16,867 bases of DNA, from the NCBI GenBank assembly GCA_022704885.1, contig JAKJFO010000078.1, positions 1 to 16,867 on the forward strand, written 5' to 3'. Under the pieces are notes generated by a model. It ran no database searches. It saw only the letters and a program-made list of their open reading frames with translations, and was not told the origin of the DNA. The translations under genes and the position numbers were made by a program. Shown in pieces: positions 558 to 16,867 of this stretch; position 1 is the first letter of the stretch; each line of letters begins with the position of its first letter. The stretch is from Candidatus Rifleibacteriota bacterium (GTDB lineage Bacteria; Riflebacteria; Ozemobacteria; Ozemobacterales; Ozemobacteraceae).

Positions 558-1121
558 CTAATTTTCTCTGGTCAGTTTGACCGTCTTGATCATTTCTTCC
601 TTGCGCAGTCCCATGCCGCCTCGCTGCATGGTAGCTTCGCCGATTGTCGTAATCTGAGCCGAAATAATTAGCTGGCGCTCGCCCGGGTTGGTGTAAGCGC
701 TGATTACCTTAAAATCTGTCGCCGAAAACTTCCAGTCGTCGGCGGCAATGCCCGGCACTTTCCAGGGAAAGGCGGCGCTGTTGCAGTCTGAATAAAAATC
801 GACAAGACCCTGCTGGTTGGCTCCTGCCACCGGATTGAGGTTAGATCCTGCAATGATGCCTCTGAACGGGCAATAACCGAGTGAAAGTACGCCAGCGTCG
901 CAGGCCTCCTGCGGAAAGGCGCTGAGCTTGAGCAGCATCATCTGGACTGCCGACTGAGCCAGAAAATTCGCCTGCAGGAAATGGATATTGGTGATGTTCT
1001 GCTGCTTCGATTCTTTGCGAAAAAATACCAGTGATGCGGTAAACACCATGATGCACACGGCAAAAACCAGCACCAGCGGCAGGGCGATACCCTTTCTGGA
1101 AAAGGCGCTATTCTTTGTCAA
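558..1121 (-). CDS. PilX/GspK-like minor pseudopilin, TTG start
   Basis: A 187-residue prepilin-like protein. The chosen start is TTG at 1121: GGAGGG (1128-1133) lies 6 nt upstream, and the start overlaps the end of the preceding PilV-like gene by 14 nt. An ATG at 1253 in the same frame would overlap that gene by about 146 nt and add residues unlike a prepilin leader. The N-terminus reads ...FSRKG|IALPLVLVF..., a short basic leader with Gly at -1 of the prepilin peptidase site (after residue 11), followed by a hydrophobic helix to about residue 34. Position +5 is Leu, not the usual Glu; absence of Glu+5 is typical of the GspK-type tip pseudopilin. The rest is a small periplasmic domain with three Cys (residues in CDAG, GYCP, SDCN). 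Likely part of the priming tip of a type IV pilus or type II secretion pseudopilus. Whether PilX or GspK cannot be decided here. Confidence 0.8.
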   Translation of the reverse strand: MTKNSAFSRKGIALPLVLVFAVCIMVFTASLVFFRKESKQQNITNIHFLQANFLAQSAVQMMLLKLSAFPQEACDAGVLSLGYCPFRGIIAGSNLNPVAGANQQGLVDFYSDCNSAAFPWKVPGIAADDWKFSATDFKVISAYTNPGERQLIISAQITTIGEATMQRGGMGLRKEEMIKTVKLTREN

Positions 1122-1671
1122 CGAATGCCCTCCTTGCCAGCAGCTCGAACTGATTTGTATCGTTATACTCACCACCTGGAACATGCCATCTGACCACCAG
1201 CCTGATATCGGCCAGGCGGCAGAGCCCGGCAGTGTCAGGATAAACTTCTGCAATGCTCATCGAGTCTGGCGGACCTAAAGTCCCGCCAGGGTTGCCTTCA
1301 ACCCCTGAAGAACAATTCATCGGGTCATGAAAAACGAATTTGGGTATGGCAAAGTTCAGTTCTGCACTTGTGAACGGATAGACCGTATACTCACCCGAAA
1401 ACTTGTTGCCCTTTACATCATGGTCAGCGCCAAAAGACCAGGGTTGCGCGGCGCCAGCGCCCGAGAGAAGGTTGTCGCGGCTGATGACATACATCAGTCG
1501 GTTCATCTCTTCTTTGGCCAGATTGGCAGCGATTCCTTCGGCGTCCTGTTCGCGGGTTCCCCGGTTGGTGTATTGCAGCAGTCCGAAAACAGGCAAGATT
1601 ACGAAGGCGAGTATGCCAACTGCAATCATCAGTTCGGTCAGCGTAACCCCTGTTCTTGATTTTCTGGTCAT
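1108..1671 (-). CDS. PilV/GspI-like prepilin-type pseudopilin
   Basis: A 187-residue type IV prepilin-like protein. The leader MTRKSRTG is followed by VTLTELMIAVGILAFVI: Gly at -1, a hydrophobic residue at +1 and Glu at +5, the canonical class III signal cut and N-methylated by prepilin peptidase PilD/GspO. Residues 9-30 form the transmembrane and assembly helix; the remainder is a periplasmic head. Size, hydrophobic N-terminus and neighbours fit PilV or GspI minor pilins. The ATG at 1671 lies 1 nt after the TGA of the PilW-like gene, and its SD (AGGTGA, 1673-1678) contains that stop, which points to translational coupling. It overlaps the next gene by 14 nt. The N-terminal motif is certain; the PilV versus GspI assignment is inferred from operon position and length. 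Confidence 0.88.
   Translation of the reverse strand: MTRKSRTGVTLTELMIAVGILAFVILPVFGLLQYTNRGTREQDAEGIAANLAKEEMNRLMYVISRDNLLSGAGAAQPWSFGADHDVKGNKFSGEYTVYPFTSAELNFAIPKFVFHDPMNCSSGVEGNPGGTLGPPDSMSIAEVYPDTAGLCRLADIRLVVRWHVPGGEYNDTNQFELLARRAFVDKE
1128..1133 (-). promoter_or_regulatory. Shine-Dalgarno that selects a TTG start
   Basis: GGAGGG lies 6 nt before TTG (1119-1121) inside the 3' end of the PilV-like gene. It is the reason for preferring the TTG over the far upstream ATG for the PilX/GspK-like protein. Confidence 0.75.
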
Positions 1672-1672
1672 A

Positions 1673-2314
1673 TCACCTGTTTACTTTGACCTCGACTTTG
1701 GCGCCGGTCTCGGCGATGACGTGAGCGAATTCATAAGCCACTTTGTCAGGGTGTTCGACTCTGGCTTCAAGGGTTACCAGCGTGCCGGCCGAAATGTTGT
1801 CGGGGTCGAAAGGATCGACCCTGATTTTGAGGCTCGCTACGTCAGATATGACTTTATAATTGCTGTATGTCTGCTCTTTGTTAAGGGGGTCGGAGCCGTC
1901 AATTGTTTTGGTATACAGAATTGTACCGTTCTCGAGCTTCAGTTCGCAGCGAAACTTAGCACCAGGACTGTCTGGATCGCCGGTCACATAGGGAAGGCAG
2001 ATATACCAGTTGGCAATTTCGCCGTCGCCGGTCAATTCATCGGCCGCAGTTAGATTGAACTCAAAGCCGGCTTCAGTGATATCGGTGCCGCCCAGGCTGA
2101 CAGTAGTCAGAGGTGTAGCTTTCTGCATTTCTTCGCGGATAAAAGTCAGAGCATTGCGCAGTTTGTTCTGGGTTGTCAAAGACCAGTTGCCCTTTTGAAA
2201 GGACTTGGAAAAGCTGACGAACACCCGATAGCCGATCAACAACAGAATAGAGAGGACTGCCGCTGCTATCAGCATTTCTAACAGGGTGAACCCGGACTTT
2301 CTGGCACATTTCAT
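1673..2314 (-). CDS. PilW/GspJ-like prepilin-type pseudopilin, first gene of the operon
   Basis: A 213-residue prepilin: leader MKCARKSG, then FTLLEMLIAAAVLSILLLI with Phe+1 and Glu+5, the textbook N-methylation motif. The helix runs to about residue 30, followed by SFSKSFQ and a long periplasmic domain including a segment like those of PilW/GspJ (RNALTFIREEMQKA). It is probably a minor pilin priming assembly of a type IV pilus or pseudopilus together with the two downstream pseudopilins. The ATG at 2314 has no convincing Shine-Dalgarno; an extended -10 element ends about 10 nt upstream, so the message may be nearly leaderless. The gene is followed with 1-nt spacing by the PilV-like gene, so the order here is W-V-X rather than the V-W-X common in Pseudomonas. 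Confidence 0.88.
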   Translation of the reverse strand: MKCARKSGFTLLEMLIAAAVLSILLLIGYRVFVSFSKSFQKGNWSLTTQNKLRNALTFIREEMQKATPLTTVSLGGTDITEAGFEFNLTAADELTGDGEIANWYICLPYVTGDPDSPGAKFRCELKLENGTILYTKTIDGSDPLNKEQTYSNYKVISDVASLKIRVDPFDPDNISAGTLVTLEARVEHPDKVAYEFAHVIAETGAKVEVKVNR

Positions 2315-6693: not shown

Positions 6694-8028
6694 TTACTTG
6701 TTGAAGTTGGCGTCATGCATGGCTTTGATGCGGTCGAGTGACTTTTTGACTTCGGCGACCTTGCGCTTGTAAGGAGCAATATATTCTTCGATGATTCTGG
6801 TGCGGTTGGCAAGCAGGTTGTCGTAGTCATCACGGGCCGTGCGGACTTCATGTTCGTAAGGTCTGAGGTAGTCTCTGATGATGCGGTCACGGTTGCGTCT
6901 GATATCCTGCAGTTCACGGTTGGCATTTTCGAGGTTGCGTCTGGCGCGTTCGATTTCTTCGGGCGGAGTGGTAGTGACTTTGCTGAGTTCATTGAGGCGA
7001 TCCTGAGCACGTTTTACGTTATGCTCGGCATTGCGCAGGCGGTTTTCGTAGTCGCGGTCAGCATCGTGACGTGCCCGGCGCAGACTGTCTTCTGCTCTCT
7101 CGATTTCGTCTCTGGCGCGGCGCACACGATCTTCAAAGTTGCGTTCGGCTGCTTCTCTCTGGCGGTCGAGGATCTCGAGCGCGACGCGATAGTCGTTCTG
7201 ATGGCGCTCGACGATTGAAAAACTGACGAGTTGCGGAGTTTCGTTGAGATCCTGTGAAAGCAGATCGACTGCCTTGCGATAGTCTTTGCTGGCCTGCAGA
7301 AAATTGCTGTCGTAGGCGTCGATAGCCTTGGTCAGGTAGACATCGGAAAGGCGCTTGAAAAAGTCGGGGTAGTCCTGCGGACGCTGTGGATAATTGTATT
7401 GTTCGATAAGGTCGAGGGCAGCGAGTTCAGCTGAATTGCCAGACCAGGGAGCCAGGATTTCAAAGAGCCAGTAGACGGCTTCGCGCATGCTGCCATCGAG
7501 TTTGTAGCAGTCGACGACTTCGAGCAGGTTGTTGTCGGTGCGACTCATTTCGAGCAGCCACTTGATCGCCTGGTGATAATCTTTCTTGGCTTTGAAGCAC
7601 GAAGCTATGCGGGCCCGCACTTCGTCAGTGCGATTTTCGACCTTGAGGTAATATTCGATGGCCTTGTCGTAGTTTCCACGCTTTTCGAAAGCGTAAGCGA
7701 CATCAAAAACCATCTTCTGCACCTGCTGGGCAGTCGACTTCATTTCACTGTATTTCTCGCTGACCAGTGCTTCATTTTTTTCGATTTCGCTGTCGAGAGC
7801 CTTCTTTTTGCTGCCCTGAAACCAGCCGCTGGCACCATCGTATTTCGAACGTTCCTGCTGCAGTTTGTCGAGCCTGAGTTCAGGTTCGAGCAGCTGCGTT
7901 TCAACGCTGATCAGCTTTTTTTCGAGTTCTTCGATGTCCTTTTCTTCAGCTGCACCTGCCATGAAAGGATTGATCGCCATGGTTACCGAAAAGATACCTG
8001 TTAAAATCAAATTCTTATTGATATTCAT
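6694..8028 (-). CDS. Exported coiled-coil/TPR protein with 29-residue repeats
   Basis: A 444-residue protein of unknown function. The start is the ATG at 8028 with GGGAG 8 nt upstream; an ATG at 8046 lacks such a site. Residues 1-27 form a signal peptide (cleavage after MAGA). A first coiled coil spans about 30-90 (EELEKKLISVETQL...). TPR-like helices follow at about 108-270 (YAFEKRGNYDKAIEYYLKVE, KKDYHQAIKWLLEM). From about 285 to 440 there is a very charged Arg/Glu/Asp-rich helix with an internal period of 29 residues: FEDRVRRA (298) recurs as YENRLRNA (327), and NRDRIIRDYLRPY (379) as NRTRIIEEYIAPY (408). It is probably a periplasmic structural or tethering protein. It forms an operon with the upstream exported protein gene (22-bp gap) and ends at the hairpin terminator. 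No family recognised. Confidence 0.85.
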   Translation of the reverse strand: MNINKNLILTGIFSVTMAINPFMAGAAEEKDIEELEKKLISVETQLLEPELRLDKLQQERSKYDGASGWFQGSKKKALDSEIEKNEALVSEKYSEMKSTAQQVQKMVFDVAYAFEKRGNYDKAIEYYLKVENRTDEVRARIASCFKAKKDYHQAIKWLLEMSRTDNNLLEVVDCYKLDGSMREAVYWLFEILAPWSGNSAELAALDLIEQYNYPQRPQDYPDFFKRLSDVYLTKAIDAYDSNFLQASKDYRKAVDLLSQDLNETPQLVSFSIVERHQNDYRVALEILDRQREAAERNFEDRVRRARDEIERAEDSLRRARHDADRDYENRLRNAEHNVKRAQDRLNELSKVTTTPPEEIERARRNLENANRELQDIRRNRDRIIRDYLRPYEHEVRTARDDYDNLLANRTRIIEEYIAPYKRKVAEVKKSLDRIKAMHDANFNK

Positions 8029-8050
8029 GTGGTTTTCTCCCTTCATTTCT

Positions 8051-9064
8051 TCAGCGGGCGTCTACGTATACATCGCCAAGGTCGATCTTGCTGAAGTATA
8101 CGGCATTGCGCTGGCTGCCATTTTTCGACATTACCCAGATTTCGGCGAGAGCGTTTTTAAGCTGCAGTTTCTTTTCGCCGGCTACGTTCTCGAGCGAACC
8201 GAGAGTAGCAAGTTCTTTGTAGTGGTTGTCGGCAAGGTATCTGGTCGGATCTTTTTCGACGACTGATTTATACCAGGAAAGCTCGCCCATTACGCTGTTG
8301 CCGGAAGCCGGTGCGATTTTGAAATCGACCGATTTTTTGCCAGACCAGAAACCACCGGTGGTGAGTCTGACCACGGCTTTCATATCGTTCTGCACGAGAT
8401 CGCCGCCGAAGTGACCGAGAATGGCATCGACTACGAATTTGCGACCTGAGAAATAGAAGGTGTGAGTCAGGCCGTTGCTGTCGTCACTGTTGTCTGAGAG
8501 GATGCGGCAGTTATGGCGCGAAAAGATGTTCTTAAGGTTGTCGAGACGTCGGTTCTTGTCGGTATCGGTGAAAGAGATGACCGCTTCGACTACAGGAATT
8601 TCGATCATTACCAGGCGGCGCTGGCGTTTGTTCATCAACACTTCAGGATTGGCAGCGGCGCGGCCACTGGTGCTCAGGTTGATTTCGGGAGCGATTGCGG
8701 CGCTACCCGAGATGAAACCGGCTCTCTGTTGCAGGAGTTTTTCAACTACCGCTACTGTGTGGGCATTAAGGTCACTGCCGGCGGCAAAGGCTGCGAGTGT
8801 GTTCTGTGCTGTTTCAAAATCCCGGGTTGATTCAATTTTACTGATGATGTCGCGAATCGATCTTTCGGCCTTGTCGGCGCGGTCGGCGGCACCTTCGAAT
8901 GCCTGCTTCTCAGCGCTGCCAGCCTTTTCGCTGGCGAGGTAGGCGGCCTGAGAAATTGCTTCGGCATAATTCCCGAGACAATTGTTAAAATCAGCCTGAT
9001 CAAAAGCGAAGGCTGAGAGAGAAACGAGAGTTAAGAACAGAACCAGAGCGGTCTTTCGCAACAT
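8051..9064 (-). CDS. Exported protein of unknown function
   Basis: A 337-residue protein. The start is the ATG at 9064 with AGGAAGG 9 nt upstream; a longer reading frame to 9166 has no SD and would bury the signal peptide. Residues 1-20 form a signal peptide (cleavage after AFA). Residues 22-125 look all-helical and Ala-rich (EKQAFEGAADRADKAERS). A mixed alpha/beta region of about 145-260 has two strand-helix-strand stretches (RLVMIEIPVVEAVISF, THTFYFSGRKFVVDAIL), followed by a helical tail with a final KIDLGDVYVDAR. I recognise no catalytic motif. It is first of a two-gene operon with the coiled-coil/TPR protein, both exported, so they may act together in the envelope. Confidence 0.83.
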   Translation of the reverse strand: MLRKTALVLFLTLVSLSAFAFDQADFNNCLGNYAEAISQAAYLASEKAGSAEKQAFEGAADRADKAERSIRDIISKIESTRDFETAQNTLAAFAAGSDLNAHTVAVVEKLLQQRAGFISGSAAIAPEINLSTSGRAAANPEVLMNKRQRRLVMIEIPVVEAVISFTDTDKNRRLDNLKNIFSRHNCRILSDNSDDSNGLTHTFYFSGRKFVVDAILGHFGGDLVQNDMKAVVRLTTGGFWSGKKSVDFKIAPASGNSVMGELSWYKSVVEKDPTRYLADNHYKELATLGSLENVAGEKKLQLKNALAEIWVMSKNGSQRNAVYFSKIDLGDVYVDAR

Positions 9065-9227
9065 ATCCAGTTTCCTTCCTCTAAAAAGTTTAAGGATGTG
9101 GTGTTTTGAGCAATTTTTGTACCACTGTATAGAAAGCCTGATATAGCCAATTCTGTGATTTTGCACTCAAATCTGCCTAATTTCCGGCAGCTGACCGGCT
9201 TATTTTTCAGCAGCATCTTCGGCATTA

Positions 9228-12029: not shown

Positions 12030-15000
12030 ATGGAAGAAAACGAAGTAAAGACCGTCAAAAAATCGCGCGGGGTAATGTTCTATCTCAAGATTTTTCTGGT
12101 TTTCATACTGCTTCTGGGCGCATCGATGGCAATCGGTGTGTACTACGTTTATCATCGCCTGACTACAGACAGCCAGCTCGAGAAGATTGTCGGCGAGAAA
12201 ATCAGTTCAGCTATCAGCATGGAAGTGAAATTTGCGGGAATCGAAGTATCGTTTCCCAATATCACTATCAAAGATATCAGAGTGGCTACCGATTCGCCCG
12301 AACTCAAGCTGGATGCCAATATTTCGTTGCTCAGCGTAACTCCAGACTTTTTTGCCGCTCTTCAGGGTGAGCTTGTGCTTGACTCGGTCAACATCGCTTC
12401 CGGCGTGACCAGAGTCGAGATGGTATCTTCGCATGCTGCTTCAGCAGCTCCAGATGCCGGTGTCGAAAAGAAGCCTCTCGATCTTTCTACCATTAAGCTG
12501 CCATTCAGAAATGTTGGCATGAGCAATCTCAGGTTCAGCGTCAAGACGGCAGATGTTGAAAAACCGCATGAACTGCTGCTTAAAAATGCCAGTATCTCGA
12601 GGTCGATGCTGTCGAGTACACTGCCGTTCAATATTGATGTCGATGTGATATCTCTCGCTGCCGCGCAGATCGAAGGCAGAATCGTCTGGCCTGACAGTGT
12701 CAGCGCCTCGCTCAAGGTTTCGGCTGAAAATATTGAAGAACTCAAAAAGCTGATACCGGCGGAGCATCAGAAACATCTGACCTTTATCAAGTCAGCCAGT
12801 ACACAGGCCGAAGTTGTATATAACCTCAAAAATGGTTCAATCAAGGTAAGCGGCGCTCAGATTATTGTTGAACCAGGCATCAAGGCCGATATCGGCGTAG
12901 ACGTTGCCAGTGTTTCGCCGCTCAATGCTACTGCCACTTTCAAGCTGTCGCCGCTGCAGGTCGACATGCTGTGGCCGCTGGTCAAAGGTTTTGTGCCGGC
13001 CGAACACGGTCTGCTCGTCAAAAATGGTTCGGTTCAGGCTGAAGGTTCGGTTGCGCTGATCGACGCCGTTCCGGCAGCAATTGACGTGAAGATTATTCCT
13101 GAGAAGATAACGGTAACCGCAAAGGCTTTGCCAGAACCGGTTCAGCTCGAACGTGGACAGATTATTTATAAAGATGAAAAAATCGGTTTTTCTGGTTTTT
13201 CCGCTAAAATCGCAGACTCGCAGATTCAGCTGGTCAGCGGAAGTCTGAAAATCGAGCCGCTCGCCTTCAGCGGCGAAATCAGCGCCGATGCCAATTTTGA
13301 CAGTATCTGGAAGCTGCTGTCGCATTATCTGAGTGATGATGCAAAAAGAGTGACGCCTTCCGGCAAGGCTTCTTTCAAGGGAAAGATCGCTTACGACAGC
13401 AAGGGCCCGAGAATTGACGGGGCATTTGCCTCAGATCGTATTACTCTTAAAGAAAAGCAGACTTCAACCCAGGCTACGATCGAAAAGGTCAAGGTGCGTC
13501 TTGAAGAGGTTGGCGATGCCAAAGGAAAAATACACGTAGAGAGCCTCGAAGCGAAGGGTGTCGGCGCTCTGGTTAAACTCAAGGGTGTTCTGACCAACGC
13601 AACCGATATCGGTCTCGACTTTTCGGCCGATGGTAACGTCAATATAGATGAATTCGCCAGGCTCGGTGCCAGCCTGTTTAAGCTGCCGATAAAACCCGGG
13701 CAGTTCAAGGGTGAGATGATACTGGCCATGCAGGTCGGTGGTAAACTCAGCGATATCAGGCCAAAGGGCCGTCTTGAACTGAAAAATGTTTTTGCCGACC
13801 TGTCTGAGCGCGGTTTGGTTCTGGCAAACCTCAACGGTGCCGCCAGCGCCGATCTCGACAAACTCGTTCTCGACAAGGTAGCTGCCGAGATTCTCGGGGG
13901 CAAAGTCGCTATCAGCGGGACTCTGAAAGATTTCAAAAAACCGGTTGTAGATGCCAGTCTTGGTATCAGCGGCGCCGATCTGGGTCAAATCAGGGCGATG
14001 GTTGCCAAAAACTATCCGGAAATGCCGGCAGAGCTTGAAATTAGCGGCAAGTCAGACCTTAATGTCAATGTCAGAGGAACTGTCGAAAAACCTGACGTCA
14101 ACGGAGAGGCTACGCTGAAAGGAATCAGATTTTTTCATCCGGCAGTATTCAGACCGGTTGAAAACATCAGCGGGCCGATCAAAATCAGCAATAAAGGTCT
14201 TACTACCAGTGGGCTGACGGCAGGCTGGGGAACTTCGAAAGCCAATGTCACGGGTGAACTCACTGACTGGGGAAAACTGGTCAGCAACTTCAAATTTATT
14301 GTCAGCCCGCTTGACGCAACCGATGCCGCTGGCTTTTTTCTCAAAGATACCGGCTATGTCTTTGACGGCAAAGGTACCGGCAGCGGTGCTATTACCGGTC
14401 CGCTCGAGAAGATCAAGGTTGCCGGAGTGGCTTCTGTTCCTGCCGGACTGGTAACAGCTCAGGTTGCAGAAAAGGGCGAAGCTTTCAAATTTCCGTTTCA
14501 GAAGCTGTCTGCCAGCTTTGCTTATACCGAATCGGTGTTCTCGATTCCAGCAGCGGAATTCGATATTTTCAGCGGTAAGGTTAAGGGCAACGGCAAGGTT
14601 TTTCTCGCTTCTGAGCCGATCAAATTTGAATTCAACAGTAACATCGATAATCTGATGACCCAGGAATTTCTCAAGCAGAACACAAAATACCCGAACATTC
14701 TGACCGGCGCGCTCAATGGAAGTTTTGCCGGCCGTGGCAACACTCTTGGCCTGGCTGAACTCAACGGCGACGCAAAACTTGCCATGCCGAAGGGAACTTA
14801 CAACTCTCCGCCTTTTCTCAAGCAGATTGCCGACAAGTTGAATGCCCCGCAACTCGCTTCAGGAACCATTGATAATGCTGCCGGCGACTATAAGATTTCG
14901 GGTGGCCGGATAAGTTCAAACAATGTGCTTGCCAAAGCAGGTGAAGACAGAGTAACTTTTGTAGGGTCGGTAGGTCTCGATACCACCCTCGACGGTGAAG

Positions 15001-15398
15001 CGCGTTTTCAATTGAATCGCCAGACGGCTCTGAAGAGCAACATTCTGAAGGAACTGATCGGCGATGAAGCATCAGTTGAAATACCGGTGACCATAAAGGG
15101 TTCGTTTATGTCACCTTCGATAGGTATTCCGCTGGATCGAATGCTCAAGGAAGCGGCTGAACGCCGGGCGAAGTCGACGATCAAGAAAGAGGCCGGCAAG
15201 GTTCTCGATCGTCTGTTCGGTGGTAAGAAGCAGCCAGCAGCTCAGACTGCAACTGCATCGGCCCCGGTTGCTCCAGCACCGGCACCTGCTACTGCTTCTT
15301 CGACGGTGCAACCGGCTCCGAAGCCGTCGCCGCAGAAGCAGATCGAAAACAAGATCAAGGATCTTGGCAAAGATCTGAAAAATATTTTTCGCCGATAA
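12030..15398 (+). CDS. AsmA/YhdP/TamB-type intermembrane protein
   Basis: A 1122-residue protein. A short basic cytoplasmic start (KTVKKSRG) is followed by one membrane helix (about 15-38), then a very long periplasmic region of alternating short strands. Early residues (LEKIVGEKISSAISMEVKFAGIEVSFPN-ITIKDI) match the AsmA N-terminal pattern. Repeated phrases such as SLLSVTPDFFAALQGEL, GQFKGEMILAMQVGGKLSDIRPKG, and near the end VEIPVTIKGSFMSPSIGIPL (about 1015-1035) are typical of the AsmA C-terminal domain (AsmA_2-like). Residues 1065-1095 are an Ala/Pro-rich linker, and the last 20 are a basic helix. Family members (AsmA, YhdP, TamB, YdbH) form a hydrophobic groove bridging inner and outer membranes and move phospholipids. 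That role is inferred here. It is followed after 12 bp by a STAS gene. Its presence implies an outer membrane. Confidence 0.88.
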   Translation: MEENEVKTVKKSRGVMFYLKIFLVFILLLGASMAIGVYYVYHRLTTDSQLEKIVGEKISSAISMEVKFAGIEVSFPNITIKDIRVATDSPELKLDANISLLSVTPDFFAALQGELVLDSVNIASGVTRVEMVSSHAASAAPDAGVEKKPLDLSTIKLPFRNVGMSNLRFSVKTADVEKPHELLLKNASISRSMLSSTLPFNIDVDVISLAAAQIEGRIVWPDSVSASLKVSAENIEELKKLIPAEHQKHLTFIKSASTQAEVVYNLKNGSIKVSGAQIIVEPGIKADIGVDVASVSPLNATATFKLSPLQVDMLWPLVKGFVPAEHGLLVKNGSVQAEGSVALIDAVPAAIDVKIIPEKITVTAKALPEPVQLERGQIIYKDEKIGFSGFSAKIADSQIQLVSGSLKIEPLAFSGEISADANFDSIWKLLSHYLSDDAKRVTPSGKASFKGKIAYDSKGPRIDGAFASDRITLKEKQTSTQATIEKVKVRLEEVGDAKGKIHVESLEAKGVGALVKLKGVLTNATDIGLDFSADGNVNIDEFARLGASLFKLPIKPGQFKGEMILAMQVGGKLSDIRPKGRLELKNVFADLSERGLVLANLNGAASADLDKLVLDKVAAEILGGKVAISGTLKDFKKPVVDASLGISGADLGQIRAMVAKNYPEMPAELEISGKSDLNVNVRGTVEKPDVNGEATLKGIRFFHPAVFRPVENISGPIKISNKGLTTSGLTAGWGTSKANVTGELTDWGKLVSNFKFIVSPLDATDAAGFFLKDTGYVFDGKGTGSGAITGPLEKIKVAGVASVPAGLVTAQVAEKGEAFKFPFQKLSASFAYTESVFSIPAAEFDIFSGKVKGNGKVFLASEPIKFEFNSNIDNLMTQEFLKQNTKYPNILTGALNGSFAGRGNTLGLAELNGDAKLAMPKGTYNSPPFLKQIADKLNAPQLASGTIDNAAGDYKISGGRISSNNVLAKAGEDRVTFVGSVGLDTTLDGEARFQLNRQTALKSNILKELIGDEASVEIPVTIKGSFMSPSIGIPLDRMLKEAAERRAKSTIKKEAGKVLDRLFGGKKQPAAQTATASAPVAPAPAPATASSTVQPAPKPSPQKQIENKIKDLGKDLKNIFRR

Positions 15399-15410: not shown

Positions 15411-15767
15411 TTGGATAACAAGAATTTTTCCCTCAACTTCAAGAATTCGGGCAAAATAACGATAGTTGAGTTCACCGGATATCTTGCTGCTGGAGTGACC
15501 GAAGCTCTGGTGCCAAGAATTGAGGAACTTCTGGTCGAGGGCTGTCGCGATTTTCTGTTCGATTTTTCAGGCGTAACGATGCTTGAGAGCGCTGCCGTTG
15601 CCGGTATTCTTGCCACTACCGAAAAGATTGTCGATGACCGTCAGGGCAACCTCGCTTTCTGTAAACTCAACGATGTGTCGCGGCGGGTTCTCGAGATGGT
15701 CGGCGTTTTTCTTTATGCCGGCTGTTTTGATACGTCTGAACAGGCAATCGCTGAAATGTCTGACTGA
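15411..15767 (+). CDS. STAS-domain protein (anti-anti-sigma factor or MlaB type)
   Basis: A 118-residue single STAS domain starting with TTG. Strand-helix order is visible: ITIVEFTGYL, then a helix TEALVPRIEELL, then FLFDFSGVTMLESAAVAGIL, the STAS signature in which Ser60 sits where SpoIIAA-type proteins carry the phosphorylated Ser. LEMVGVFLY and FDTSEQAIAEM close the fold. The usual DSxG motif is changed to ESAA. STAS proteins either switch partner-binding with an anti-sigma kinase or, as MlaB does, belong to a phospholipid-transport complex. No kinase or sigma factor lies nearby, while the gene is 12 bp downstream of an AsmA-type lipid-bridge gene and surely cotranscribed, so a link with lipid transport is at least as likely as sigma-factor control. 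The STAS assignment is strong; the role is inference. Confidence 0.86.
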   Translation: MDNKNFSLNFKNSGKITIVEFTGYLAAGVTEALVPRIEELLVEGCRDFLFDFSGVTMLESAAVAGILATTEKIVDDRQGNLAFCKLNDVSRRVLEMVGVFLYAGCFDTSEQAIAEMSD

Positions 15768-15839: not shown

Positions 15840-15987
15840 GATACGGTTATTTTCGCCATTTCGGGAGTAGACACAGGCAACAATCAGCAAAGGTAGAAAC
15901 GACGATTAATTTTAGGCAGACAGCTGCTGAATTTTTGCATATATCGGGCGCGGTTTTTCTGTAACTCGCTTTAATACCGATGTTTTG

Positions 15988-16015
15988 TTGTGGTACACGT
16001 TTTGCGTTGTAATAC
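15988..16015 (+). promoter_or_regulatory. Candidate promoter of the secreted repeat protein
   Basis: TTGTGG (15988-15993), a 16-bp spacer and TAATAC (16010-16015). Predicted start is near 16022, giving a leader of about 44 nt that is almost pure A/U (16020-16047) until GGAGGG. It is one of several possible matches in this AT-rich stretch. Confidence 0.4.
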
Positions 16016-16050: not shown

Positions 16051-16056
16051 GGAGGG
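16051..16056 (+). promoter_or_regulatory. Shine-Dalgarno of the secreted repeat protein
   Basis: GGAGGG, 9 nt before the ATG at 16066, following an A/T-only stretch that should leave the site unstructured and well exposed to ribosomes. Confidence 0.75.
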
Positions 16057-16065
16057 AGCGACTGT

Positions 16066-16867
16066 ATGTCTAAGAACTGGGCAAGACTGATAGCTCTTGT
16101 AACTATCTTCTGTATGTTGTTCTCGGCTGAAGTGTTTGCAGGCAAGGGTTATGGTAACTCTGGCTGCCACCACAAACCAGGTTTCTTCAGCAAGATTGGC
16201 AAATGCATCAAGAAAGCCACTCAGAAGGTTGCCAAAGCAGTTAAAACAGCTGCCAAGAAGACCGGGCAGGCAATCAAGACTGCTGCCAAGAAAACTGGCC
16301 AGGCCATCAAGAACGCAGCTGTAAAAACCGGCAAGGCCATCAAAGTGGCTGGAGCCAAGATCAACAACGCTTTCAAAGACACCGGCGTAGCAATCAAATA
16401 CAAGCTTACCGGCTGCAAACATCGCGTGTGGGTTGTTGGTCACTACGACAAGAACGGCAAATGGATCAAAGGTCACTGGCGCAAACATGACCAGATCGTA
16501 GTTAAACCAGGTTGGGGCAACAATCCTGGACAGGGTAATAACCCCGGTCAGGGCAATAACCCCGGTCAGGGCGGCGAACCTCTTCCTCCGATCGACAACG
16601 AACCGGGTCAGGGCAATGAACCTGGTCAGGGTGGCGAAACTGCACCGATCCCCGAAGAGCCGACTCCGGCCCCCGCAGATCCAGTCCTTCCCGAACTTCC
16701 TGAAAATGGCGACAACGGCGTGCCCGGTGACTCTTCCGAAGCTACTCCCGAAACACCGGCTCCCGAAACACCGGCTCCCGAAGATCCGGTTCTCCCCGAA
16801 CTTCCTGGTGAAGAACAGCCTGGCGATGCAACTGAAGGTAATGCCGGCGAAGAACAACCCGGCGATG
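16066..16867 (+). CDS. Secreted modular repeat protein: basic hendecads, WxxGxW-like motif, acidic Pro-rich tail (3' end beyond window)
   Basis: 267 codons are visible, with no stop before the right edge. ATG at 16066 with GGAGGG 9 nt upstream. Residues 1-25 form a signal peptide (...FSAEVFA). Residues 26-48 are Gly/His/Cys-containing. Residues 49-110 are six 11-residue units, K-x-A-x-x-K-x-x-x-A-I (KTAAKKTGQAI twice in perfect succession at 60-70 and 71-81), a Lys/Ala-rich amphipathic helix recalling histone-H1-like tails or LEA-type hendecads but lacking acids. Residues 119-139 (HRVWVVGHYDKNGKWIKGHW) match the YXWxxGxW/WXXGXW repeat type. Residues 152-189 are NNPGQG and NEPGQG repeats. Residues 190-267 are acidic, Pro/Glu-rich, with PVLPELP twice (206, 241) and PETPA units. 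It is probably a surface or matrix protein with a positively charged front and a negatively charged tail. No function can be assigned. Confidence 0.85.
   Translation, partial: MSKNWARLIALVTIFCMLFSAEVFAGKGYGNSGCHHKPGFFSKIGKCIKKATQKVAKAVKTAAKKTGQAIKTAAKKTGQAIKNAAVKTGKAIKVAGAKINNAFKDTGVAIKYKLTGCKHRVWVVGHYDKNGKWIKGHWRKHDQIVVKPGWGNNPGQGNNPGQGNNPGQGGEPLPPIDNEPGQGNEPGQGGETAPIPEEPTPAPADPVLPELPENGDNGVPGDSSEATPETPAPETPAPEDPVLPELPGEEQPGDATEGNAGEEQPGD

What the first reader, a model, noticed from the sequence alone, without database searches (positions are those of the whole stretch)
16066..16867. Secreted diblock protein: basic 11-residue helical repeats joined to a WxxGxW motif and an acidic Pro/Gly tail
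One exported chain combines a Lys/Ala hendecad array (residues 49-110, two units identical), an aromatic HRVWVVGHY...KGHW element, NNPGQG repeats and a long acidic Pro/Glu tail. The basic part could bind nucleic acid, teichoic-like polymers or membranes; the acidic tail could fold back on it or bind cations. I know no characterised protein with this order. The strong SD after an A/U-only leader suggests high expression. Possible roles: extracellular matrix or eDNA binding, desiccation protection, envelope compaction.
Basis: partly seen in the sequence, partly recalled or inferred. Interest (0 to 1): 0.72.

Follow-up and report, generated by a model that had tools for sequence, protein, structure and literature searches.

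The report
Exported eleven-residue-repeat helix envelope protein
A little-studied bacterial phylum makes an uncharacterised exported protein whose positively charged helix grows in exact steps of eleven residues, as lipid-coating helices do, and whose folded end domain lies just past the edge of the window; its gene appears to be switched on by the alternative sigma factor 54.

Summary
The parts described are there, but the anatomy is cut short. Window 16066-16866 encodes the first 267 of roughly 430-450 residues of an exported protein of Candidatus Riflebacteria. The "acidic tail" is a linker: in relatives it leads to a conserved helical C-terminal domain (predicted, pLDDT 92) with no named family or clear fold match.

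The Lys/Ala array is a 3-11 amphipathic helix. Its moment peaks at 98 degrees, and the GFF-to-Asp spacing is 22, 55, 66, 77 or 88 residues in 57 of 61 distinct members (59 in four); linker lengths follow no such rule. Short exported paralogues share the helix and hairpin.

A sigma-54-type promoter precedes 18 of 25 long-form loci, 11 of 11 "type C" paralogues and a second exported gene in this window, usually with a shared operator; types A and B lack it.

Best reading: a sigma-54-induced envelope protein whose cationic helix lies on an anionic membrane or LPS surface, while a Pro/Glu linker carries the C-terminal domain away from it; perilipin-like in design, not descent. Surface binding is inferred, not shown.

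The parts
15908..15936 (+). inverted repeat AATTTTAGGCAG-N4-CTGCTGAATTTTT: candidate enhancer-binding-protein operator for the sigma-54 promoter
   Evidence: half-site TGCYGAAAWTT with at most 1 mismatch upstream of 14 of 18 long-form sigma-54 promoters, against 4 of 41 other sigma-54-like sites
15991..16005 (+). sigma-54 (-24/-12) type promoter TGGTAC-N3-TTTTGC, i.e. TGGTAC-N5-TTGC (GG 15992-15993, GC 16004-16005)
   Evidence: both blocks identical in 8 of 8 aligned loci; 18 of 25 long-form loci score 10-11 of 11
16051..16056 (+). Shine-Dalgarno GGAGGG, 9 nt before the ATG
16066..16867 (+). 5' part (267 codons) of the long-form gene; runs off the window
16066..16140 (+). signal-peptide-like segment, residues 1-25, AEVFA|GKG
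   Evidence: sequence reading; helix 3-24 in the model; no signal-peptide program available
16180..16410 (+). cationic 3-11 amphipathic helix in hendecads, residues 39-115 (GFF start to KLT)
16426..16482 (+). VWVVGHYDKNGKWIKGHWR hairpin, residues 121-139
   Evidence: strands 120-123 and 137-140 in the model of L001's protein
16515..16572 (+). NNPGQG repeats (three, residues 152-169)
16573..16867 (+). acidic Pro/Glu/Gln linker (first part), mostly low confidence in the model
   Evidence: 69-213 residues between fixed points in relatives
16678..16701 (+). linker motif DPVLPELP, copy 1 (residues 205-212)
   Evidence: DP[VAI][LIM]P in 40 of 44 long forms with spacing over 22, 0 of 18 with spacing 22
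16783..16806 (+). linker motif DPVLPELP, copy 2 (residues 240-247)
9110..9124 (-). second perfect TGGYAC-N5-TTGC match, 60 nt before the start (9064) of an exported-type gene; likely the same regulon
8051..9064 (-). exported-type protein with no Pfam match, candidate co-regulated gene
12030..15398 (+). AsmA/YhdP/TamB-like gene (sub-threshold family hits), conserved upstream neighbour
15411..15767 (+). STAS-domain gene, upstream neighbour

Best explanation
It is the N-terminal 60% or so of an exported cell-envelope protein found here only in Candidatus Riflebacteria and in a few records probably mis-binned from them. After export and removal of the signal peptide (inferred), the GFF-led, lysine-rich 3-11 helix lies flat on an anionic surface, most likely a membrane leaflet or LPS, with Ala/Thr/Ile/Val towards the lipid and lysines at the edge (inferred from the periodicity). 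Adding whole hendecads lengthens the contact without turning the two ends of the helix relative to each other (the spacing rule is shown). The GHY...GHW hairpin caps the helix (inferred). The NPGQG and Pro/Glu linker (mostly disordered in the model) then carries a folded all-helical C-terminal domain (seen in relatives; fold predicted) away from the surface, to engage an unknown partner in the periplasm or outside. Transcription depends on sigma-54 and an enhancer-binding protein that also controls a short helix-hairpin paralogue and other exported proteins (promoter and operator conservation shown; binding not tested).
For: Exact 11-residue quantisation: 57 of 61 distinct members have GFF-to-Asp spacing 22, 55, 66, 77 or 88, the other four 59 (55+4); one of the 57, L071, lacks the anchor letters. 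Control: of 59 linker lengths 2 are divisible by 11. Moment at 98.18 degrees: in 59 of 60 distinct helices at most 5 of 500 shuffles reach it; peaks 95.5-99.5 degrees. Of 39 short-paralogue helices 33 reach the 1% level, peaks 95.5-99.5 degrees. Helix net charge in long forms +1 to +24. Perilipins likewise combine an 11-mer 3-11 helix with a C-terminal four-helix bundle, and such helices fold on contact with lipid (PMC5889406, passages). The C-terminal domain alone is confidently helical (pLDDT 91.8, pTM 0.82); in G001 it also occurs behind a Gly-zipper-like segment (L019). Gene order: AsmA-like upstream in 15 of 24 and 5'-nucleotidase-type downstream in 17 of 24 fetched long-form loci (some contigs end before). 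Sigma-54-type promoter in 18 of 25 long-form loci, window included, and in 11 of 11 type C paralogues at 9-11 of 11 positions, 8 of them at 10 or more. Operator half-site in 14 of 18, 9 of 11, and 3 of 3 for the gene at window 8051-9064 and its two orthologues. Sigma-54 is linked to control of the bacterial exterior (PMC3162934, abstract).
Against: No experiment and no solved structure. Helix pLDDT is only 53-69 in the full model. Whole-hendecad steps could partly reflect slippage of a 33-nt unit rather than selection. The deep members have a short helix of charge +1 to +7, so strong electrostatic docking cannot be common to all. The same periodicity suits a hendecad coiled coil. Three related loci (L052-L054) lack the promoter although rpoN is found in their genomes, while four genomes whose long form has the promoter (G002, G003, G012, G020) show no rpoN, perhaps because they are incomplete. 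Second copies L066, L067, L070 and divergent L071 lack the promoter. The operator pattern was read from the sequences it was then counted in. 16 of 39 genomes of the phylum lack any match. No fold search gives a functional hint.
Confidence: 0.5

Rival explanations
1. The cationic helix binds an extracellular or periplasmic polyanion (eDNA, acidic polysaccharide, LPS core) and condenses or cross-links it; the C-terminal domain is an adhesive or polymerising head.
For: Helix net charge up to +24 in long forms and +6 to +18 in the short paralogues; no acidic residue in residues 49-104 of the window protein.
Against: The sharp 98-degree moment and register-keeping spacing are not needed for a plain polycation, and the deep members have little charge but keep the moment.
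Confidence: 0.22
2. The hendecads form a right-handed coiled coil or a rigid single-helix spacer (TolA-like), so the array sets a distance and not a contact area.
For: The hydrophobic positions of the unit (I, A, A, T/V/I in the layout) can be read as the a, d, e, h core of a hendecad coiled coil (pattern recalled); the model draws long helices 40-75 and 79-115; register is kept.
Against: About +20 over 77 residues with almost no acidic partners disfavours self-association; the core is Ala/Thr/Gly-rich; helix confidence is low. Oligomer prediction was not run.
Confidence: 0.15
3. A charge-balanced polyampholyte: basic block and acidic linker pair within or between chains.
For: Mean N-module charge +17.7 against mean linker charge -20.6; raw Spearman rho -0.78, n 58. 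After tree correction a weak trend may remain (rank -0.22, p 0.09; regression t -1.9).
Against: The plain tree-corrected correlation is r -0.14, p 0.29, 59 contrasts: much of the raw signal is the split between hendecad-rich and deep members. The folded C-terminal domain is not explained. No LEA match for the window protein.
Confidence: 0.08

Closest known systems
Perilipins, alpha-synuclein, apolipoproteins: 11-mer 3-11 amphipathic helices
   Same: 11-residue repeats with amphipathicity at 11/3 periodicity, weakly hydrophobic face, variable unit number; perilipins also end in a predicted four-helix bundle (PMC5889406, passages)
   Different: Exported-type bacterial protein; helix nearly purely cationic; GHY hairpin, NPGQG and Pro/Glu linker; no family match (only ApoLp-III far below its cut-off, E 0.1 and 1.5)
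Phasins (PF05597), granule-coat proteins
   Same: Weak profile hits in 4 of 33 members, best E 0.021; for L001 the hit lies on the helix
   Different: Below the curated cut-off (14.8 against 28.8 bits for L001); phasins are cytoplasmic granule proteins (recalled)
WXXGXW repeat proteins (PF12779)
   Same: W-V-x-G-H...G-H-W look of the hairpin
   Different: 0 of 8 Riflebacteria genomes have a match over the cut-off, and the weak matches listed are not in this gene
TolA / TonB type envelope spacers
   Same: Lys/Ala helix (TolA) or Pro/Glu linker (TonB), then a C-terminal domain (recalled)
   Different: No Pfam match to either as listed; the C-terminal domain is all-helical; the signal peptide looks cleavable (reading)
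Group 3 LEA proteins (11-mer)
   Same: 11-mer repeats (recalled)
   Different: No LEA match for the window protein; LEA 11-mers mix Lys and Glu (recalled), these carry no acidic residue

Membership tests
Pfam WXXGXW (PF12779) | match over the curated cut-off (18 bits) | tested here: not met
   0 of 8 genomes over the cut-off; best 14.8 bits, not in this gene
Phasin (PF05597) | match over the curated cut-off | tested here: not met
   14.8 against 28.8 bits for L001; 4 of 33 members match at E up to 1, best E 0.021
Perilipin / synuclein / apolipoprotein families | sequence family match | tested here: not met
   none for the window protein or the relatives scanned except ApoLp-III E 1.5; ApoLp-III E 0.1 in 1 of 33 members (first 25 of 33 families shown)
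11-mer lipid-surface helices (functional kind) | 11/3 amphipathic periodicity, register kept when units are added | tested here: met
11-mer lipid-surface helices (functional kind) | folds on, and binds, a lipid surface | not testable with these tools
   needs a liposome or LPS binding assay
Group 3 LEA | LEA family match | tested here: not met
   no LEA family among the three listed for the window protein at E up to 1; one search shows the first 25 of 33 families, none LEA
Any PDB family for the C-terminal domain | sequence match | tested here: not met
   best E 0.02, over 42 positions, unrelated chain
Any PDB fold for the C-terminal domain | clear structural match | tested here: inconclusive
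Sigma-54-dependent genes | conserved -24 GG / -12 GC promoter | tested here: met
   18 of 25 long-form loci score 10-11 of 11; consensus recalled
Sigma-54-dependent genes | genome encodes RpoN | tested here: inconclusive
   34 of 39 genomes; of the 17 genomes with a promoter-bearing long form 13 have it, 4 do not (G002, G003, G012, G020); the window's own genome is not held

The most novel reading that the evidence does not exclude
Riflebacteria have an inducible extracytoplasmic surface coat built like a perilipin or synuclein coat. A sigma-54 regulon makes the long form together with short helix-hairpin subunits; the helices tile one membrane face in hendecad register, and DPxLP tails (in the long-form linker and at the ends of type A paralogues) dock on the C-terminal domain in cis or in trans, tying the coat together.
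Probability: 0.12. Interest if true: 0.82.

Novelty: new variant of a known kind. Interest (0 to 1): 0.58.

Why it matters
Long 11-mer lipid-coating helices are best known from animal cells (recalled; see also PMC5889406). An exported bacterial family with the same periodicity, naturally sampled at 3 to 9 hendecads with register kept, would give a ready series for asking how helix length sets surface binding. The shared promoter and operator give the family a candidate regulon, and so a route to its function, in a phylum that the literature searched barely treats (40 papers name Riflebacteria; in none of the 30 listed is it in the title or abstract). The C-terminal domain is a confidently predicted fold with no named family found.

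Tried and rejected
Own genome: none held. Phage origin: no tblastn match in 50,697 phage records; PHROGs hits are weak and, for the long form, on or around the helix. Full-model fold search gave only common helical arrangements. Charge co-evolution: not shown after tree correction. WXXGXW family: not met. Pfam hits to glutenin and extensin I take as low-complexity matches in the Gly/Pro/Gln-rich linker. A genome scan with the strict sigma-54 pattern is noisy (22 hits against 14 for the reversed pattern in G001, 17 against 8 in G021, 14 against 5 in G005), so single hits elsewhere are not claimed. Left out before counting: six of 44 loci gave no hit by the pattern (L028, L107, L125, L126, L130, L131); L028 was caught by a looser pattern, the other five were never classed. 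In one search three of 43 rows (L017 293 aa, L021 and L027 211 aa) are unrelated frames. L024 gave no row. P0036 and P0044 (no N-terminal module) were left out.

Full report
What is in the window. The frame 16066-16866 is open to the end of the window and gives 267 residues: a signal-like segment (1-25), a basic helix beginning GFF (39-115), VWVVGHYDKNGKWIKGHWR (121-139), three NNPGQG (from 152), and an acidic Pro/Glu stretch with two DPVLPELP motifs (205-212, 240-247). Two units of the array are identical; self-identity at lag 11 is 0.47; the hydrophobic moment of residues 39-115 peaks at 98.0 degrees, and 0 of 5000 shuffles reach it.

What the window hides. A search of 5.8 billion proteins gave 37 relatives; a profile search gave 47, the same 37 and 10 more. 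Where a source names the organism it is Riflebacteria, Ozemobacteraceae or Rifleibacteriota, except one 'Erysipelotrichia bacterium' and one 'bacterium'; locus L005 is titled Methylomirabilis. I take the odd names as mis-binned; for L005 the gene order supports that (its contig, fetched again as L055, carries the same gene block). The closest named relative, Candidatus Rifleibacterium amylolyticum (L001; best segment 85% identical), has a complete 454-residue protein with a stop. In it and in the 31 other rows of alignment A1 besides the window protein, the linker is followed by a C-terminal domain of about 125-130 residues (some database proteins outside A1 are fragments). AlphaFold2 on L001's protein draws helices 40-75 and 79-115, a hairpin 120-123/137-140, a linker mostly under pLDDT 57 except residues 251-270 (82), and a C-terminal domain at 89 or more in each ten-residue block from 331; the domain alone gives pLDDT 91.8 and pTM 0.82. 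No Pfam, NCBIfam or PDB sequence family fits, and fold searches give nothing above the background for helical models.

The hendecad rule. From the G of GFF to a fixed D (L001 G39 and D105) the residue count is 22, 55, 66, 77 or 88 in 65 of 69 rows and in 57 of 61 after merging rows with the same N-module; the other four are 59, that is 55 plus a 4-residue stutter. One row, L071, lacks the anchor letters (56 of 60 without it). The linkers of the same proteins show no such rule (2 of 59 lengths divisible by 11). The moment at 98.18 degrees is reached by at most 5 of 500 shuffles in 59 of 60 distinct helices. So the array is a 3-11 helix whose length changes by whole hendecads (three turns each) while its ends keep register. 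The members with spacing 22 have only three hendecads and no Lys/Ala expansion. I call them deep from their divergence (28-38% identity of the C-terminal domain to L001 for most of those loci, 24-25% for the lowest) and take the expansion as derived, which is an inference.

A family, not one protein. In 39 genomes of the phylum, 23 have a match to the full profile and 21 to the C-terminal domain. Of the two that differ, G014's copy runs off a contig end and G007 shows only short proteins. Short exported-type paralogues (about 115-227 residues as called) share the helix and a [WF]VxGHYxK...xGHxR-like hairpin: type A ends in a DPxLP-like tail, type B is minimal, type C has GQ-rich repeats before the helix. 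Their helices behave alike (33 of 39 at the 1% level). In G001 one further gene (L019) couples a Gly-zipper-like segment (Pfam YMGG hit below its cut-off) through a Pro/Glu linker to the same C-terminal domain; seven database proteins resemble it, one named glycine zipper family protein of Rifleibacteriota.

Gene neighbourhood. Of 24 fetched long-form loci, an AsmA-like gene lies upstream in 15 and a 5'-nucleotidase-type gene downstream in 17 (Pfam 5_nucleotid_C for L001's copy), often followed by genes that in L001 have GAF/HD (HD-GYP-like) and HAMP/HEAT domains and by TPR and PrmA-like genes (by reading). Several contigs end too early to show both sides. L066, L067, L070 and L071 show neither; the first three are second copies in their genomes.

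Regulation. In eight aligned upstream regions TGGTAC and TTTTGC, three bases apart, are identical in all eight; this is the sigma-54 -24/-12 pattern TGGYAC-N5-TTGC (consensus recalled). Over 25 loci, 18 match 10-11 of 11 scored positions about 62-87 nt before the start, a score reached by 0-2 of 100 shuffles of the same region. The seven without it are L052-L054, whose genomes do have rpoN, and L066, L067, L070 and L071. rpoN is found in 34 of 39 genomes; four genomes whose long form has the promoter (G002, G003, G012, G020) are among the five without it, perhaps because they are incomplete. Type C paralogues have the promoter in 11 of 11 (scores 9-11, 8 of them 10 or more); type A in 0 of 18 rows and type B/other in 0 of 14 rows at 10 or more, three of the 14 being unrelated frames; two B rows score 9 but 248-259 nt upstream. 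The window holds a second perfect TGGYAC-N5-TTGC site at 9110-9124 (-), 60 nt before an exported-type gene; at one mismatch the window has 8 matches against 2.3 expected. L019's gene has TGGCAC-N5-TTGC too. Within 140 nt upstream of the promoter, a half-site TGCYGAAAWTT (one mismatch allowed) occurs in 14 of 18 long-form, 9 of 11 type C and 3 of 3 loci of the second window gene, against 0 of 5 Hsp20/ClpB sites, 0 of 1 for L019 and 4 of 41 other sigma-54-like sites; group means in shuffles are 0.01-0.08 per sequence. The half-site was chosen by eye from these sequences, so one search is partly circular and the comparison with the other sigma-54-like sites carries the weight.

Mechanism. Shown: 3-11 periodicity, register rule, gene-order conservation, promoter and operator conservation; by reading, an export-type N-terminus; by prediction, a mostly disordered linker and a folded end domain. 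Inferred: docking of the helix on an anionic membrane or LPS face; the hairpin as a cap; the C-terminal domain as a displayed binding head; envelope stress or surface remodelling as the trigger. Sigma-54 has been tied to the bacterial exterior by comparative genomics (PMC3162934, abstract). The nearest design is that of perilipins (PMC5889406, passages), by analogy and not by descent.

Against the reading. Helix confidence is low; hendecad steps may arise by slippage; the spacing-22 members are weakly charged; a hendecad coiled coil is not excluded; charge balance between helix and linker is not shown once the tree is taken into account; the promoter is missing in three loci of one group, and rpoN was not found in four genomes that have it.

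Novelty. I found no paper on this family: searches for Riflebacteria (40 papers, 30 listings seen), Ozemobacteraceae (3), Rifleibacterium (0), Riflebacteria with outer membrane and amphipathic (0) and WXXGXW (1) showed no title or abstract start on it. These cover open-licence papers only, and only listings were seen. I rate it a new variant of a known kind (11-mer surface helices) with an unnamed C-terminal domain.

Noticed in passing
window 9110-9124 (-) and 8051-9064 (-): A second perfect sigma-54-type site with operator half-sites precedes an exported-type protein without Pfam match, followed by a TPR-like protein (6694-8046); relatives in G001 and G021 keep the site (L140, L168).
   Followed up: partly
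L017, L018, L020-L029, L100-L129: Three classes of short, very basic exported-type paralogues (types A, B, C); only type C carries the sigma-54-type promoter.
   Followed up: partly
L019:3373-4407: Gly-zipper-like segment joined by a Pro/Glu linker to the same C-terminal domain, behind TGGCACGCCTTTTGCG.
   Followed up: partly
L138, L146, L162, L178, L184: Hsp20 and ClpB-type genes (Pfam for L138 and L146; the others by BLAST) also sit behind sigma-54-like sites, with a different upstream sequence by eye, suggesting another enhancer-binding protein.
   Followed up: no
L157, L163: An exported-type VIT/VWA protein (Pfam for L157) behind a sigma-54-like site, with a relative behind one in G021; L157 has two operator half-sites.
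   Followed up: no
window 1108-2314 (-): Two prepilin-like genes with N_methyl motifs.
   Followed up: no
L001:19598-20500 (-): Exported-type protein with a long glycine-rich hydrophobic stretch at the far end of the same gene block, matched in L053, L054, L055 and L065.
   Followed up: no
L005: Locus titled Candidatus Methylomirabilis carries the riflebacterial gene block; probably a mis-binned contig.
   Followed up: no
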